The position numbers and the translations under genes are program-made. Positions 34,790 to 54,407 of a DNA stretch of 64,000 nt are shown here, one piece after another (the stretch's first letter is position 1; the number at the start of each line of letters is the position of its first letter). A model generated the notes under the pieces. It was not told where the DNA came from, searched no databases, and saw only the letters and a program-made list of their open reading frames with translations. Source of the stretch: Phaeobacter sp. CECT 5382 (GTDB taxonomy: Bacteria > Pseudomonadota > Alphaproteobacteria > Rhodobacterales > Rhodobacteraceae); NCBI RefSeq assembly GCF_001457775.1, contig NZ_CYSG01000003.1:186001-250000 (forward strand). The letters run 5' to 3'.

Positions 34790-36381
34790 TGAGCCTGCTT
34801 CAGATATCAAACCTGTCACTGCGGATCGGCAGCCATGCCATTCTCAAAGCTGTGTCGCTCGCAGTCGCCCCCGGTGAAATCGTCGCCGTCACTGGTGAAA
34901 GTGGTTCTGGCAAGTCGATGACCGCCTTTTCAGTTATGGGGTTGCTGCCCGAGACAGCCATGGCCAGCGGCAAGATCATGCTTGAGAGCACAGATCTGCT
35001 GACCCAGAACGAAGCGCAGATGTGCACCCTGCGCGGGGCAAGTATCGGCATGGTGTTTCAAGAACCCATGACGGCGCTGAATCCGGTCAAGACAATCGGC
35101 GATCAGGTGATGGAGACCATCCTGATCCACAAGGCCATGCCAGCGGATCAGGCCCGCACCCGCACACGCTCGTTGCTGGATCGTGTTGGCCTGTCTGCGG
35201 ATCGCTTTCCCCTGTCGCGCTACCCGCATGAGCTGTCCGGCGGCCAACGCCAGCGGGTGGTCATTGCCATGGCCATCGCCCTGCGCCCCAAGCTGTTGAT
35301 CGCGGATGAACCAACAACGGCGCTGGATGTCACCACCCAGGCGCAGATTTTGGATCTGCTGCGCGATCTGGTGCACGAGTTTGACATGGGGCTGCTGATC
35401 ATCACCCATGACCTGGCGGTTGTTGCTAATCTCGCCGATCGCATCGTGGTCATGCGCCATGGCGAGGTCGTGGAAACAGGCTCTACACAGGTACTTTTGC
35501 GCGATATGCAGCATCCCTACACAAAGATGTTGTTTGCCGCCTCGAGCCATCAGGTGACCTTGCCGGAACCTCCGGCACCGCAACCGCTGCTGGAGGTCAG
35601 GGGCGCGATACGGGACTACCCCTTGCCACGTGAGACACTGTTTGCAAAACCAAAGCAGTTTCGGGCCGTCAAAGATGTCTCTTTCACCCTCTATCGTGGC
35701 GAGCGTCTGGGACTGGTGGGTGAGTCAGGCTGTGGAAAATCGACCCTAACTCGGGCCATTTTGGGGCTAGAGCCGCTTCAGGGCGGTGAAATTCTGCTGG
35801 ATGGCACCCCCATCACCACGACCCAAAACTCAGAAATCCGCCGCAAGATGCAGGTGGTGTTTCAGGACCCCTTTGGCAGCTTCAACCCACGCCACCGGGT
35901 GGACAAACTGATCACCGAACCCTTCCATATTTTGAGCGATCCGCCACAGGGTTCCGCCCGCAGTGATCTGATCACCGAAACCTTGCGGGCGGTGGGGTTG
36001 CAGCCCGAAGACGCACAGAAATACATCCACCAGTTTTCCGGCGGCCAGCGCCAGCGCATCGCCATTGCCCGCGCCCTGATCACCCGCCCGGAACTGATCC
36101 TGTTTGACGAAGCCGTCTCGGCGCTGGATGTCTCGGTGCGCGCCCAGATCCTCGATCTGCTGGCAGAGCTATGTGAGGCCTATGCCCTCAGCTATCTGTT
36201 CATCAGTCATGATCTCAGCGTGGTGCGCACCATTACTGATCGCTGCCTGGTGATGCAAAAGGGCGAAATCGTCGAAGCGGGCGCGACCGAGGCGATCTTC
36301 TCCTCCCCGCAACACCCCTATACCCAAGCCCTGATTGCGGCCGCCCCGGTGCTGCCCGAAATCGATCTGGGGGCGGCATGA
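34789..36381 (+). CDS. Fused ABC transporter ATPase (DppD-DppF type)
   Basis: A 530-residue protein with two nucleotide-binding domains in one chain, so it supplies both ATPase sites. Domain 1 has Walker A GESGSGKS, signature LSGGQRQRV and Walker [13 protein letters not shown]. Domain 2 starts near residue 265 and has [17 protein letters not shown] and [12 protein letters not shown]; the usual Glu after Asp is kept (FDEA). This domain order is that of YejF/GsiA-type importers. The GNAT gene overlaps its 3' end by 4 bp. Confidence 0.93.
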
Positions 36382-49522: not shown

Positions 49523-52384
49523 TCAGCTGTCGCCGTCTTCTTCGTAGTCCGACATCGGCGGGCAGGTGCAGATCAGGTTGCGATCGCCATAGGCGTTATC
49601 CACGCGGTTGACCGGCGACCAGTATTTGTCGACACCCAATGAGCCGGGAGGGAAGCAGGCAGCTTCGCGGCTGTAGGGCCGGTCCCAGTCCCCCACCAAG
49701 TCACGCACCGTGTGTGGTGCGTTCTTCAGCGGGTTGTTTTCGGGGTCGATCTTTCCGTCGATCACATCCTGTGCTTCACCCCGGATCGACAGCATGGCGT
49801 CACAGAAGCGATCCAGCTCGTCTTTGGGCTCTGATTCCGTGGGCTCAACCATCAGCGTGCCAGCCACAGGCCAGGACATGGTTGGCGCATGGAAGCCCGA
49901 GTCCACCAGGCGTTTGGCCACGTCATCGACGCTGACGCCGCCTTGGTCGTTCAAAGGACGGGTATCCAGGATGCATTCATGCGCCACACGACCGGTCGCG
50001 GAGGTGTAAAGGATGCCATAGGCGTCTTTTAGGCGGGCCGCGATGTAGTTGGCGTTCAGGATCGCAACCTTGGTTGCCTGTGTCAGACCTGCGCCACCCA
50101 TCAGCAGGATATAGGCCCAGGACACGGGCAAGATCGAAGGAGAGCCAAAGGGCGCCGCCGAAACCGGACCAACAGCAGAGCCATATTCCGGGTGACCCGG
50201 CAGGTGTTCTGTCAGGTGCGCCTTGACGCCGATGGGACCCATGCCGGGGCCGCCGCCGCCATGCGGAATGCAGAAGGTCTTATGCAGGTTCAGGTGGCTG
50301 ACATCGCCGCCAATCTTGCCGGGCTGGGCAAGGCCCACCATGGCGTTCATGTTGGCGCCGTCGATATAGACCTGGCCGCCGTGCTCATGGGTGATGTCAC
50401 AGACTTCCTGCACGGTTTCTTCAAACACACCGTGGGTCGACGGATAGGTGATCATGCAAGCCGCCAGATTATCCGAGTGCTTTTCAGCCTTGGCACGGAA
50501 ATCGGCGACATCGATGTTGCCGTTGTCATCTGCTACAACCGGAACCACCTTGTAGCCCACCATCTGCGCCGAGGCGGGGTTGGTGCCATGGGCCGAGGTC
50601 GGGATCAGGCAGACATTGCGGTGGGCTTCACCGCGCGCTGCGTGGTAGTTGCGGATGGTCAGCAGGCCGGCATATTCCCCCTGCGCGCCCGAGTTGGGCT
50701 GCTGGCTGATCGCATCATAGCCGGTGATCTGGCAGAGCTTTTCGTTCAGATCGTCGATCATCGCGTGATAGCCCATCGCCTGATCTTTGGGGCAGAAGGG
50801 GTGCAGGTTGCCGAACTCGGGCCAAGTGACCGGGATCATCTCGACGGTGGCGTTCAGCTTCATGGTGCAGGACCCCAGCGGGATCATCGAACGATCCAGC
50901 GCCAGATCGCGATCTGCCAGACGGCGCATGTAGCGGGTGATTTCTGCCTCGGCCCGGTTCTTGTGAAAGATCGGATGGGTCAGGTATTCACTTTCACGCA
51001 GTGCATGCTCGGGCAGACGGTAGGCACGGTTGGCCTGGCTGTCGTCCTTTTTCGTGATGCCAAAGGCACCCCAGACGGCCTCGATGGTTTCTGCGCGGGT
51101 CTGCTCGTCGAGGCTGATGCCGACCTTGGTTTCACCCACCTTGCGCAGGTTGATGCCACGGGCAACGGCAGCTTCCATGACAGTCTGCTGCAGTGGGCCG
51201 ACCTCAACCGTGATGGTGTCAAAGAAGACTTCGGGCTCAACGCTGAAGCCGTGCTCTTCGAGACCCGCCGCCAGACGCGAGGTTTTACGGTGGACCGACT
51301 GCGCGATCGCCTTGATGCCGTCGGGGCCGTGGTAGACAGCGTACATGGAGGCCATGACAGCCAGCAGCGCCTGTGCAGTGCAGACGTTGGAGTTGGCTTT
51401 TTCGCGACGGATGTGCTGCTCGCGGGTTTGCAGCGCCAGACGGTAGGCTTTGTTGCCACGGCTGTCGATGGAGACACCGATGATACGGCCGGGCATGGCG
51501 CGCTTCAGCTTATCTGTGGTGGCCATATAGGCCGCGTGTGGGCCACCATAGCCCATGGGAACACCAAAGCGCTGGGTCGAGCCGATGGCAATATCAGCGC
51601 CCATTTCACCGGGGCTTTTCAGCAGCGCCAGCGACAGGATGTCAGCGGCCACAACGGCGATGCCTTTGTGGTCATGCAGGGCTTTGATTTCATCGGTGAA
51701 ATCGCGCACATGCCCATAGGTCCCAGGATACTGGAAGATGGCACCAAAGACGGCACCGGCGTCCAGCTCATCGGGGTCGGCAACCACAACGTCGATGCCC
51801 AAAGGCTCAGCCCGGGTCTTGATCACGGCGATGGTCTGTGCGTGGCAATTCTGGTCAACAAAGAAAGCCGCGTTGTTGGCTTTGGAGCGCGAGCCACGAT
51901 GCGCCATGGCCATGGCTTCGGCGGCGGCGGTAGCCTCGTCCAGAAGCGATGCGTTGGCGATATCCATGCCGGTCAGATCGCTGACCATAGTCTGGAAGTT
52001 CAGCAGCGCCTCAAGGCGACCCTGGGAGATCTCGGGCTGATAGGGTGTATAGGCCGTGTACCAAGCCGGGTTTTCCAAAATGTTGCGCAGGATCGGCGCA
52101 GGTGTCGAGGTGCCATAATAGCCCTGACCGATCAGCGAGGTCAGTACCTTGTTCTGGCCAGCCACTTCTTTCATGTGGAACAGCGCGTCACGCTCGGTCA
52201 TCGCCGGGCCCCATTCCAGCGGTTCTTGCTGGCGGATGGCGGCGGGCACGGTGGCGTCGATCAGGTCATCAAGGGTTTTGAAGCCGATCACCTTCAGCAT
52301 CTCGGCCATTTCAGCCGGCGAAGGGCCGATGTGGCGACGGTTTGCGAAGTCGTAAGCTTCATAATCGGTAAGTTTAAAGGCCAT
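49523..52384 (-). CDS. gcvP: Glycine decarboxylase (P-protein)
   Basis: A 953-residue fused P-protein that decarboxylates glycine with pyridoxal phosphate and passes the methylamine to lipoyl-GcvH. The PLP lysine is Lys702 in [57 protein letters not shown] and GSCTMKLNA are classic. The start ATG at 52384 ([21 protein letters not shown]) has AAGGA ten bases upstream; a longer frame reaching back into gcvH is spurious. It is third in gcvT-gcvH-gcvP, 77 bp after gcvH. Confidence 0.97.
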
Positions 52385-52431
52385 GTTTTTGGTCCTTAAG
52401 TCAGGGCTGTGAAAGATCCCGAAAGAGGGTC

Positions 52432-52453
52432 CCCGCCGACCAGAGTCGGCGGG
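52432..52453 (-). terminator. Hairpin between gcvH and gcvP
   Basis: CCCGCCGAC (52432-52440) pairs with GTCGGCGGG (52445-52453) around a CAGA loop. There is no T run, so processing or protection within the operon is more likely than termination. Confidence 0.55.
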
Positions 52454-52461
52454 CAGTGATA

Positions 52462-52827
52462 TTAGCCGATCAGGGCTTTGTAGCCGTCCAGATCCATCAG
52501 CTCTTCGAGCTGACCTTTGTCCGCCAGTTTGATCTTGTAGATCCAAGCGTCGCCCTCGGGGCTTTCATTCAGCGCACCGGGGGTGTCGGCCAGCGATTCG
52601 TTGGCCTCAACCACTTCGCCATCCAGCGGTGCGTAGATTTCCGATGCCGCCTTGACGGATTCGATCACGCCGATCTCGTCGCCTTTTTCAAAATCGTCGC
52701 CAGCTTCTTTTTGCTCAACGAAAACGATCTCACCCAGCTGGTCAGCCGCATGCTGGGTGATGCCTACAGTGGCGATATCACCTTCAACGGTGACCCATTC
52801 GTGCTCTTCGGAATAATAGGTGGTCAT
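52462..52827 (-). CDS. gcvH: Glycine cleavage system H protein
   Basis: A 121-residue lipoyl carrier. The lipoylated residue is Lys59 in [15 protein letters not shown], and YYSEEHEWV at the N-terminus and EAWIYKIK-like [11 protein letters not shown] at the end are standard. The lipoate is made in place by LipA from the same block. It lies 43 bp after gcvT. Confidence 0.97.
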
Positions 52828-52870: not shown

Positions 52871-53968
52871 TCAGCGTTTGTAGTTCTGGGTCACAAAGGG
52901 CAGCGCGACGATTTCGGCCGGCTGGGCCTTGCCCCGGATGATCAGATTTACTTTCTCGCCTGGCTCGCCATGCCCTGCAGAGACATAGCCCATGGCAACG
53001 GGCCCACCGACAGTTGGACCAAATCCGCCCGAGGTGATGGCACCGATGGTGTTGCCCTCAGAGCATTGCACCTCAACACCCTGACGGGCAGGCGCGCGAC
53101 CTTCGGGCTTGATGCCGACCAATTTTCGCGCAGCACCTTCAGCCAGTTCCTTCTGGATGCGCGCAGCCCCCGGAAAGCCGCCCTCTTCGCGGCGGCGCTT
53201 CTGCATCGCCCAGGTCAGCGAGGCCTCAACAGGCGAGGTGTCGTTATCGATGTCATTGCCATAGAGGCAAAGGCCTGCCTCAAGGCGCAGGCTGTCACGC
53301 GCGCCCAGACCTGCAGGCTCGCAGTCTTCATGCGCTAGGAAAGCGCGGGTGATTTCCACGGCCTTGTCTTCTGGGATCGAAATCTCGTATGCCGTCTTCT
53401 GCTTGAAAAAAAAACGCGACAGGCGGCATTCAACCCCCATGATCTCGGCCACGATGGTTTCCATGAACTTCATGTCACGGGCAGCGGGGCACAGATCACC
53501 AACGACGTTTTCCGCCGATGGACCCTGCACGGCAACCAGAGCGCGGTCAAAGATCTCGGTGACCTCAACGCCCTCAAGGTTTTTCGCCATATGAGGGATG
53601 TCCTGATGGCGCATCGAAGCATTGACCACGACAAAGAAGTGATCGCCTGCATTGGAGACGATCAGATCGTCCATGATGCCGCCGTTCTCATTGGTGAAGA
53701 ACGTGTAGCGGGCCTTGCCCTCTTTCAGCGTGGTGAAAGCGGAAGGTGCGATCTTTTCCAGCTGAGTGGCAACATCACCACCTTTGAGGATCACCTGCCC
53801 CATGTGAGAGACATCAAACAGACCGGCCTTTTCGCGGCACTGCTTGTGTTCGCCCATGATACCCATGGGGTATTGAACCGGCATTTCCCAGCCAGCGAAA
53901 TCAACCATCTTGCCGCCGAGTTCGACGTGCAGATCGTAAAGCGGGGTGCGTTTGGGTGCGTCAGTCAT
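52871..53968 (-). CDS. gcvT: Aminomethyltransferase (T-protein); contains adapter artefact
   Basis: A 365-residue protein that moves the methylene group from aminomethyl-lipoyl GcvH to tetrahydrofolate. GGKMVDFAGWEMPVQYP and LFDVSHMGQV mark the N-terminus. The start is ATG 53968 (MTDAPKRTPL); upstream in-frame sequence overlaps the stress-protein gene. At residues 186-196 the conserved GYTGEDGYE-type segment is replaced by FFFKQKTAYEI, the translation of a poly-T plus Illumina P7 adapter sequence (53382-53414). Reading frame is kept and both flanks (CRLSR and SIPEDKAVEI) are normal. I take the real gene to be intact and the sequence to be in error there. Confidence 0.93.
   Translation of the reverse strand: MTDAPKRTPLYDLHVELGGKMVDFAGWEMPVQYPMGIMGEHKQCREKAGLFDVSHMGQVILKGGDVATQLEKIAPSAFTTLKEGKARYTFFTNENGGIMDDLIVSNAGDHFFVVVNASMRHQDIPHMAKNLEGVEVTEIFDRALVAVQGPSAENVVGDLCPAARDMKFMETIVAEIMGVECRLSRFFFKQKTAYEISIPEDKAVEITRAFLAHEDCEPAGLGARDSLRLEAGLCLYGNDIDNDTSPVEASLTWAMQKRRREEGGFPGAARIQKELAEGAARKLVGIKPEGRAPARQGVEVQCSEGNTIGAITSGGFGPTVGGPVAMGYVSAGHGEPGEKVNLIIRGKAQPAEIVALPFVTQNYKR
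53382..53414 (-). other. Illumina P7 adapter plus A run (assembly artefact)
   Basis: Bases 53382-53405 on the plus strand match the 24-base complement of the Illumina P7 flow-cell primer (ATCTCGTATGCC... ending CTGCTTG) with no mismatch, followed by nine A (53406-53414), as when a read runs past its adapter. The native sequence probably resembles the adapter here (GAAGACGGC and TACGAGAT in both), which may have let adapter-bearing reads be joined. Confidence 0.93.
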
Positions 53969-53993
53969 TGTTTGATGCCTTTGTGTTCGAAGA

Positions 53994-54407
53994 TCAGTCG
54001 CGGACAACCATAACGGTGCAATGAGCATTACGCACCACACGGGCGAGATTGGGTCCGATCTCGTAGTTCGGGAAATCACCCTTGGCCGAAGCCATGATGA
54101 TCATGTCAAAACCGTCTTTATGCGCGAGTTTGAGAATACCGCGGTAGGCGCTGCCTTCTTCGATATGCACAGGCACATCGGATGCATTGCCGTTATCCAG
54201 GATCGCCTGCACTTTAGCGCGCACATAGTCTTTGGCTCCGGCGCCGTAGTTGGCGGGCAGATTGGGCAATTGGATAATCTCGGGGATAACCTCCACCGCG
54301 TGCAGCTCGGCACCGTAGAATTTGGCTTGCTCCAGGGCGAGCGGAAGTGCTTTTTTCCACGACCGGTCATCAGTGTGATCAATCGTCAGCAGGATCTTTG
54401 TAGCCAT
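53994..54407 (-). CDS. Universal stress protein (UspA family)
   Basis: A 137-residue cytosolic Usp-fold protein. KILLTIDHTDD is the first strand and loop, and GPNLARVVRNAHCTVMVVR at the end carries a diverged G-x-x-R-N-type nucleotide site; the usual G-2x-G-9x-G(S/T) is only partly kept. I start at ATG 54407, with GGAG eight bases upstream. It sits between the symporter and gcvT in the glycine block (82 and 25 bp gaps), an uncommon placement. Its function here is unknown. Confidence 0.85.
   Translation of the reverse strand: MATKILLTIDHTDDRSWKKALPLALEQAKFYGAELHAVEVIPEIIQLPNLPANYGAGAKDYVRAKVQAILDNGNASDVPVHIEEGSAYRGILKLAHKDGFDMIIMASAKGDFPNYEIGPNLARVVRNAHCTVMVVRD

What the first reader, a model, noticed from the sequence alone, without database searches (positions are those of the whole stretch)
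53382..53414. Illumina P7 adapter embedded in gcvT
The 24 bases at 53382-53405 equal the complement of the Illumina P7 primer and are followed by nine A. In protein terms FFFKQKTAYEI, a translation often seen in contaminated assemblies, replaces the GYTGEDGYE-type motif of T-proteins, while both flanks are normal and frame is kept. A real insertion matching a synthetic oligo exactly is not credible. The affected residues lie in a conserved folate-site region, so the deposited protein would be misread as inactive.
Basis: partly seen in the sequence, partly recalled or inferred. Interest (0 to 1): 0.85.

Follow-up and report, generated by a model that had tools for sequence, protein, structure and literature searches.

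The report
Sequencing primer overwriting a bacterial gene
A stretch of a synthetic sequencing primer has overwritten, base for base, part of an ordinary bacterial metabolic gene in this genome record; it is a laboratory and software error, not biology, and it seems to fall where the real DNA already resembles the primer, so similar errors can be looked for elsewhere.

Summary
Window 53382-53405 is the exact complement of the Illumina P7 oligo, followed by nine A, inside an otherwise normal gcvT. It is a sequencing artefact.

The tools add four things. (1) It replaces bases without adding any: 10 of 10 genus relatives compared have exactly 33 bases between the same flanks. (2) It is not ordinary adapter read-through: no index or read-2 adapter adjoins P7, and it lies deep in a 350-kb contig. 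(3) The assembly holds a second exact P7 and a 28/29 P5 match, both same-length replacements. (4) Index-free P7 replacements occur in unrelated records. All 7 of 7 compared keep length; at 6 of 7 the unaltered relative resembles P7's 3' end (score 13-17; none of 31,980 control positions reached 11).

Best explanation: index-free P7/P5 oligos misprimed on sequence resembling their 3' ends, and column-wise consensus or polishing wrote the oligo over the true bases. No reads were available. One index-free site (kdpA) fits neither point; the own kinase site fits only the first. Biologically, not a real feature.

The parts
53382..53405 (-). exact 24-base P7 oligo (5'-3' on the - strand, in the sense direction of gcvT)
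53406..53414 (-). nine T (A on +) directly 5' of P7; read as the 5' T spacer of surface-bound oligos (9 here, 11 at the second own site, exactly 10 at L044, L048, L179, L183, L184, L185)
   Evidence: that Illumina's grafted oligos carry T10 is recalled; a T10 added to P7/P5-type surface primers of a paper's own design is described in PMC11123353 (one passage read)
53382..53414 (-). same-length replacement of 33 bases of gcvT that encode the GYTGEDGYE-type motif in relatives
   Evidence: 10 of 10 relatives compared have 33 bases here, no gaps; for the motif in solved T-proteins
52871..53968 (-). gcvT, glycine cleavage system aminomethyltransferase (T-protein), 365 aa, frame intact
   Evidence: (NF010093 491.5 bits, cut-off 459)
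52462..52827 (-). gcvH (lipoyl carrier protein, named by me from its sequence), next gene of the same cluster; no anomaly seen
49523..52546 (-). gcvP (glycine decarboxylase, named by me from its sequence; true start probably internal to this ORF); no anomaly seen

Best explanation
The 33 bases are an error in the deposited sequence, not DNA of the organism. Proposed chain: (1) a P7 oligo without an index (the flow-cell surface oligo, or the P7 primer of library amplification) annealed by its 3' part to the gcvT motif, whose natural sequence in the nearest relative ends in the same bases as P7; (2) extension gave truncated molecules in which P7 abuts genomic DNA directly; (3) on the flow cell these carry the surface oligo's T tail, so reads run genomic DNA, then P7 complement, then about ten A, and stop; (4) assembly consensus or short-read polishing aligned these reads without gaps and took the majority base at each column, overwriting P7 plus its tail and keeping the original length and frame. 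Shown: exact oligo identity, absence of index, same length, resemblance of the native site in relatives, mixing of oligo and native bases at sister sites. Inferred: that priming is the cause, which index-free oligo it was, and which software step wrote it.
For: Exact P7 with T9 and no index or read-2 adapter. Same-length replacement at both own P7 sites: 10 of 10 relatives compared give 33 bases for gcvT and 10 of 10 give 35 for the kinase. Own P5 site: 11 of 11 relatives give the same length (39), with 12-16 of 29 columns native P5-like against a local mean of 7.0. Over the two own P7 sites and five sites elsewhere (L044, L179, L184, L185, L200), 7 of 7 keep length, and for 6 of 7 the closest comparator resembles P7 anchored at its 3' end, gaps allowed, with scores 13, 13, 13, 17, 17, 13. 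A control of 31,980 window positions had none at 11 or more, maximum 10. Nearest gcvT relative: 8 of 8 terminal bases equal P7's 3' end; so do 3 of 10 relatives. Recurrence: 5 of 325 plasmid records matching the same Klebsiella phage-plasmid stretch carry P7 there; I read 3 of the 5, with differently named strains and identical 30-base flanks. Mixing: in two of those the off-oligo columns equal the unaltered comparator (2 of 2 and 2 of 2), and the one mismatch inside the own P5 is the base of 11 of 11 relatives. P7 matches outnumber P5 matches, as expected if P5-primed molecules lack the read-1 start: 29 against 3 plasmid records, 9 against 4 E. coli genomes (classes not separated, and the queries differ in length).
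Against: No reads are available, so priming is inferred. The own kinase site's comparators (flanks 71-86% identical) do not resemble P7's 3' end (scores 0, 4, 0). Resemblance at some of the six positive sites rests partly on a gapped alignment: the ungapped 3' run is 8 (gcvT), 8 (L044), 6 (L184), 6 (L200), but only 4 (L185) and 2 (L179). The P5 resemblance is weaker: other positions in the same loci reach 15-17 of 29, the ungapped 3' run is 1-2, and two T-tail columns of the own site differ from T without clear agreement with relatives. One index-free site, kdpA in NZ_LR882052, replaces 15 bases by 28 and its native sequence is not P7-like (best score 2), so index-free P7 can arise another way. 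L048 cannot be judged because relatives differ in length there. Why truncated molecules should outnumber true ones is not explained by data here.
Confidence: 0.8

Rival explanations
1. Ordinary adapter read-through: short inserts read into the library adapter, untrimmed reads were assembled, and a scaffolding or gap-filling step left a piece of adapter inside the contig.
For: P7 with a T/A tract is what read-through ends in, and it is common: 120 of 133 P7 rows carry an index plus read-2 or Nextera adapter. The three such E. coli sites that I compared with K-12 (cheB/cheY, phoU/bglG, kdpE) change the length of the locus.
Against: At the window site P7 abuts gcvT directly, with no index or read-2 adapter. 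It lies at position 239,382 of a 349,773-base contig, and length is preserved to the base at the three own sites. Read-through gives no reason for the native site to resemble P7.
Confidence: 0.1
2. Software-only recruitment: reads made of pure adapter sequence were mapped to the most P7-like places of the draft and overwrote them during polishing, without any mispriming.
For: It also predicts P7-like native sites and mixing of oligo and native columns.
Against: Such reads would carry index and adapter on the 3' side and would probably be clipped where resemblance ends. Yet the T tract columns, where the comparators have T at only 0-5 of 9-11, are overwritten too, and the junction with genome is sharp.
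Confidence: 0.08
3. A real insertion or substitution in the organism's DNA.
For: The reading frame of gcvT is kept.
Against: 24 of 24 identity to a synthetic oligo. Two P7 copies 204 kb apart and a P5 copy in one genome. The kinase copy puts a stop codon in its gene. The gcvT copy destroys a motif kept in the three solved T-proteins whose alignments were printed.
Confidence: 0.005

Closest known systems
Illumina adapter contamination of assemblies (e.g. Moeller et al. 2024, PMC11536531; abstract, Results and Discussion read)
   Same: synthetic Illumina sequence left in public microbial genomes, isolates included
   Different: that study searches the universal adapter AGATCGGAAGAG and reports it concentrated at contig ends. 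Here the universal adapter start has no exact match in the genome, the oligo is P7/P5 without index, sits deep inside a contig, and replaces rather than adds bases.
PCR or solid-phase mispriming (general knowledge)
   Same: junction at the 3' end of an oligo, native site resembles that 3' end
   Different: in the held library I found no paper that ties flow-cell or P7/P5 mispriming to overwritten assembly sequence (only the capped listings were seen, plus passages of PMC3163567).
GcvT / aminomethyltransferase T-protein
   Same: whole protein 85-95% identical to the ten intact genus relatives, above the GcvT equivalog cut-off
   Different: the GYTGEDGYE-type motif is overwritten in the record

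Membership tests
Ordinary Illumina adapter read-through contamination | P7 or adapter sequence identical to the synthetic oligo | tested here: met
   24 of 24
Ordinary Illumina adapter read-through contamination | index and read-2 adapter between P7 and genomic DNA | tested here: not met
   genomic gcvT starts directly at P7's 3' end; 120 of 133 rows elsewhere carry an adapter
Ordinary Illumina adapter read-through contamination | location at or near a contig end | tested here: not met
   position 239,382 of a 349,773-base contig
Index-free P7/P5 mispriming written in by consensus (proposed) | P7 directly on genomic sequence, T tract of about 10 on its 5' side | tested here: met
   T9 in gcvT, T11 in the kinase
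Index-free P7/P5 mispriming written in by consensus (proposed) | same-length replacement | tested here: met
   not met at the kdpA site L182
Index-free P7/P5 mispriming written in by consensus (proposed) | native site resembles the oligo's 3' end | tested here: met
Index-free P7/P5 mispriming written in by consensus (proposed) | raw reads with one-sided genome-P7-A10 junctions | not testable with these tools
   no reads held
GcvT T-protein | passes the curated equivalog model | tested here: met
   NF010093 491.5 bits, cut-off 459
GcvT T-protein | GYTGEDG(F/Y/V)E motif | tested here: not met
   overwritten in the record; present in the three solved T-proteins whose alignments were printed

The most novel reading that the evidence does not exclude
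Public bacterial, plasmid and phage sequences, some labelled complete, contain a systematic, sequence-directed error. Where a genome resembles the 3' end of the Illumina P7 (or, more rarely, P5) oligo, index-free mispriming makes junction reads that consensus or polishing writes over the true bases without changing length. The error can recur at the same site in separate projects, escapes length, frame and contig-end checks, and can create false losses of conserved motifs. gcvT's GEDGYE codons are one predicted hotspot; other gcvT cases were not searched for.
Probability: 0.6. Interest if true: 0.55.

Novelty: not a real feature. Interest (0 to 1): 0.33.

Why it matters
As biology it does not matter: the organism very probably has a normal gcvT. 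As data hygiene it does. The altered protein keeps its frame and passes the GcvT model, so it would enter databases as an apparent active-site variant. Sister sites show the same overwriting in records titled complete (L179, L184, L185). A screen for index-free P7 or P5 flanked by genome on both sides, away from contig ends, would find such errors; trimming of contig ends, as in PMC11536531, would not.

Tried and rejected
Real insertion: rejected (see rivals). Plain adapter read-through: rejected for this site, kept for most other P7 sites. The T tract as proof of flow-cell priming: dropped, because ordinary read-through sites show the same tract; only the missing index separates the two classes, and it cannot tell a surface oligo from an index-free PCR primer. 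G328 site L048: inconclusive because relatives differ in length there. kdpA site in NZ_LR882052: tested and does not fit. Own kinase site: same length met, P7 resemblance not met; the anchored score was computed for 3 of its 10 comparators, the ungapped counts for all 10 (3' run 0 in 10 of 10). Index-free sites L079, L100, L110 and L127 have no comparator here, and none was fetched for L183. Two K-12 regions (L196, L197) were fetched with L191 and L194 in mind but not used; L193 and L195 were not compared either. No printed source was found for the peptide or for oligo mispriming in assemblies (of which only listings were seen; the papers opened are PMC11536531, PMC11123353 (one passage) and PMC3163567 (12 passages, whose one mention of mispriming concerns mixed sequencing primers)).

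Rows dropped before counts: one of 11 gcvT relatives (G003, split match) and one of 11 kinase relatives (L043, cut at its contig start). In one search, for L044, 3 of the 5 relatives fetched were used; the other two (L206, L208) align only on one side of the site. In one search the 133 rows count each of the two own sites twice. Of the 13 rows without a recognised adapter, four are the own sites, two (L062, L090) show a damaged Nextera adapter by eye and one (L109) is cut by its locus end, which leaves L044, L048, L079, L100, L110 and L127. The local null (up to 600 positions per comparator) includes the site itself; for L185 one sampled position in 600 reached the score, for the other five positive sites none did. 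The null takes every fourth position of the window, both strands, leaving out stretches that hold 15 bases of either end of P7.

Full report
What was checked. The + strand at 53382-53405 is the exact complement of P7 and is followed by nine A at 53406-53414. On the - strand this lies in gcvT (ORF 52871-54079, T-protein from 53968) and reads SRFFFKQKTAYEIS in an unbroken frame. The protein still matches NCBI's GcvT equivalog above its cut-off (491.5 against 459 bits). Solved T-proteins align along nearly its whole length, and the three alignments printed have GYTGEDG(V/F)E where the record has the oligo.

It is a replacement, not an insertion. In 10 of 10 genus relatives compared, the same flanks enclose exactly 33 bases without gaps (an eleventh with a split gcvT match was left out). 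The nearest relative (95% protein identity) has a native sequence whose last 8 bases equal the last 8 of P7, and 3 of 10 relatives do.

It is not alone. A search of the own genome with up to 2 mismatches found two P7 places, both exact and both on contig C3. The second (34849-34872, + strand, T11 before it) lies in what reads as the receiver part of a hybrid histidine kinase. There too the length is kept in 10 of 10 relatives compared (35 bases), and the frame resumes after a stop codon created by the oligo. A P5 search found one place, with one mismatch in its 24-base pattern, on contig C13. Over the full P5 it matches at 28 of 29, in a gene that reads as a mechanosensitive-channel-like membrane protein (my reading of the translation). 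Length is kept in 11 of 11 relatives (one with gaps further along its flank), which match P5 at 12-16 of 29 columns against a local mean of 7.0; other positions of the same loci reach 15-17, so this resemblance is weaker than that at the P7 sites. The universal adapter start has no exact match and four one-mismatch matches.

Two classes of P7 in public records. P7 occurs in 3 of 394 genomes of the family, the own one included: the own genome and G328 hold index-free copies, while G231 holds four with index and read-2 adapter. Of the 133 P7 rows then held, 120 carry an index followed by read-2 or Nextera adapter, mostly at contig ends: ordinary read-through. The rest reduce to eight index-free places: the two own sites, L044 and L048 of G328, and L079, L100, L110 and L127. 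Searches of annotated records with T10+P7 gave matches, whole or partial, in 9 of 5,426 E. coli genomes, 62 phage records and 29 plasmid records. Of the 16 such places that I read, L179, L182, L183, L184, L185, L198, L199 and L200 are index-free; L180, L181, L186 and L191-L194 show an index and adapter, some with altered letters; L195 holds only a part of P7 and fits neither class. The three adapter-bearing E. coli sites compared with K-12 do not keep length.

Same length and resemblance. For the seven index-free sites aligned with an unaltered relative (own gcvT, own kinase, L044, L179, L184, L185, L200), 7 of 7 keep the length exactly. I scored the comparator's native sequence against P7, anchored at the 3' end with gaps allowed. 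Six of seven score 13-17 with their closest comparator; the own kinase scores 0, 4 and 0 with three distant relatives. Without gaps the matching 3' run is 8, 8, 6 and 6 at gcvT, L044, L184 and L200, 4 at L185, 2 at L179 and 0 at the kinase. A control over 31,980 positions of the window (every fourth position, both strands) has mean 0.7, maximum 10 and none at 11 or more. Two further index-free sites are told as fully: kdpA (L182) replaces 15 bases by 28 and is not P7-like, and L048 cannot be judged.

Recurrence and mixing. In a Klebsiella phage-plasmid tail gene, 5 of the 325 records that match the stretch carry P7; they are the first five rows of the listing. The three I read, from differently named strains, have identical 30-base flanks. 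Two are incomplete copies, and at their four off-oligo columns all four bases equal the unaltered comparator. The single mismatch inside the own P5 is the base found in 11 of 11 relatives; two further off-oligo columns in its T tail do not agree clearly with relatives. Eleven Vibrio phage records list P7 at the same coordinate (one read, L200), while at least one related phage, read as comparator, lacks it. Twelve Salmonella plasmid records match P7 in whole or part; only one was read, and whether they share a site was not tested.

Interpretation. A missing index means the priming oligo had P7's own 3' end free. Library index primers do not, while flow-cell surface oligos and index-free amplification primers do (recalled designs). 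That Illumina's grafted oligos carry a T10 spacer is recalled; PMC11123353 describes adding ten T to P7/P5-type surface primers of its own (one passage read). T runs of 9-11 fit molecules copied from the surface, but because ordinary read-through shows the same run, the spacer does not tell flow cell from PCR. The native resemblance at the 3' end, recurrence at one site in separately named strains, and replacement without length change together point to mispriming followed by column-wise consensus or polishing. P7 matches outnumber P5 matches (29 against 3 plasmid records, 9 against 4 E. coli genomes). That fits, since P5-primed molecules would lack the read-1 start, but the classes were not separated and the queries differ in length.

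Literature. Moeller et al. 2024 (PMC11536531; abstract, Results and Discussion read) describe adapter contamination in isolate and metagenome genomes, concentrated at contig ends. In the listings I saw no paper that describes index-free, same-length overwriting or links it to P7/P5 mispriming, and no paper in the library prints the peptides searched. The listings are capped and the library lacks most subscription journals, so this is weak evidence of absence.

Verdict. The feature is an artefact and gcvT is very probably intact in the organism. As an artefact it is a variant of a known kind, adapter contamination, with a mechanism that the evidence here supports but that reads must prove.

Noticed in passing
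G000:C3:34849-34872 (L001:1501-1524), outside the window: Second exact P7 in the same assembly, in a hybrid histidine kinase; puts a stop codon in what reads as the receiver domain; same-length replacement.
   Followed up: yes
G000:C13:86751-86774 and following (L210:1501-1529): P5 oligo at 28 of 29 bases in a mechanosensitive-channel-like gene; same-length replacement; its one mismatch is the base of 11 of 11 relatives.
   Followed up: yes
G328 (same family): L044, L048, L046: Two index-free P7 sites with exactly T10 and one index-bearing P7 near a contig start in one genome; L044 is a same-length replacement with P7-like relatives, L048 could not be judged.
   Followed up: partly
L182 (NZ_LR882052.1, kdpA): Index-free, incomplete P7 (22 bases, T6) that replaces 15 bases by 28; the record calls kdpA frameshifted; native sequence not P7-like, so its origin differs and is unexplained.
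   Followed up: partly
L186 (MK327946.1, T4-like phage, baseplate hub region): P7 with index and Nextera adapter inside the genome, with about 180 extra bases relative to related phages; looks like read-through misassembly.
   Followed up: no
plasmid records H50, H51, H58-H60, H64-H67, H70, H73, H78: Twelve Salmonella plasmid records match P7 in whole or part, several at similar coordinates; beside traB in the one read; may be a recurrent site.
   Followed up: no
G003:C35 (L014, L015, L027): gcvT match split over three overlapping places in one genus relative, perhaps frameshifted or misassembled.
   Followed up: no
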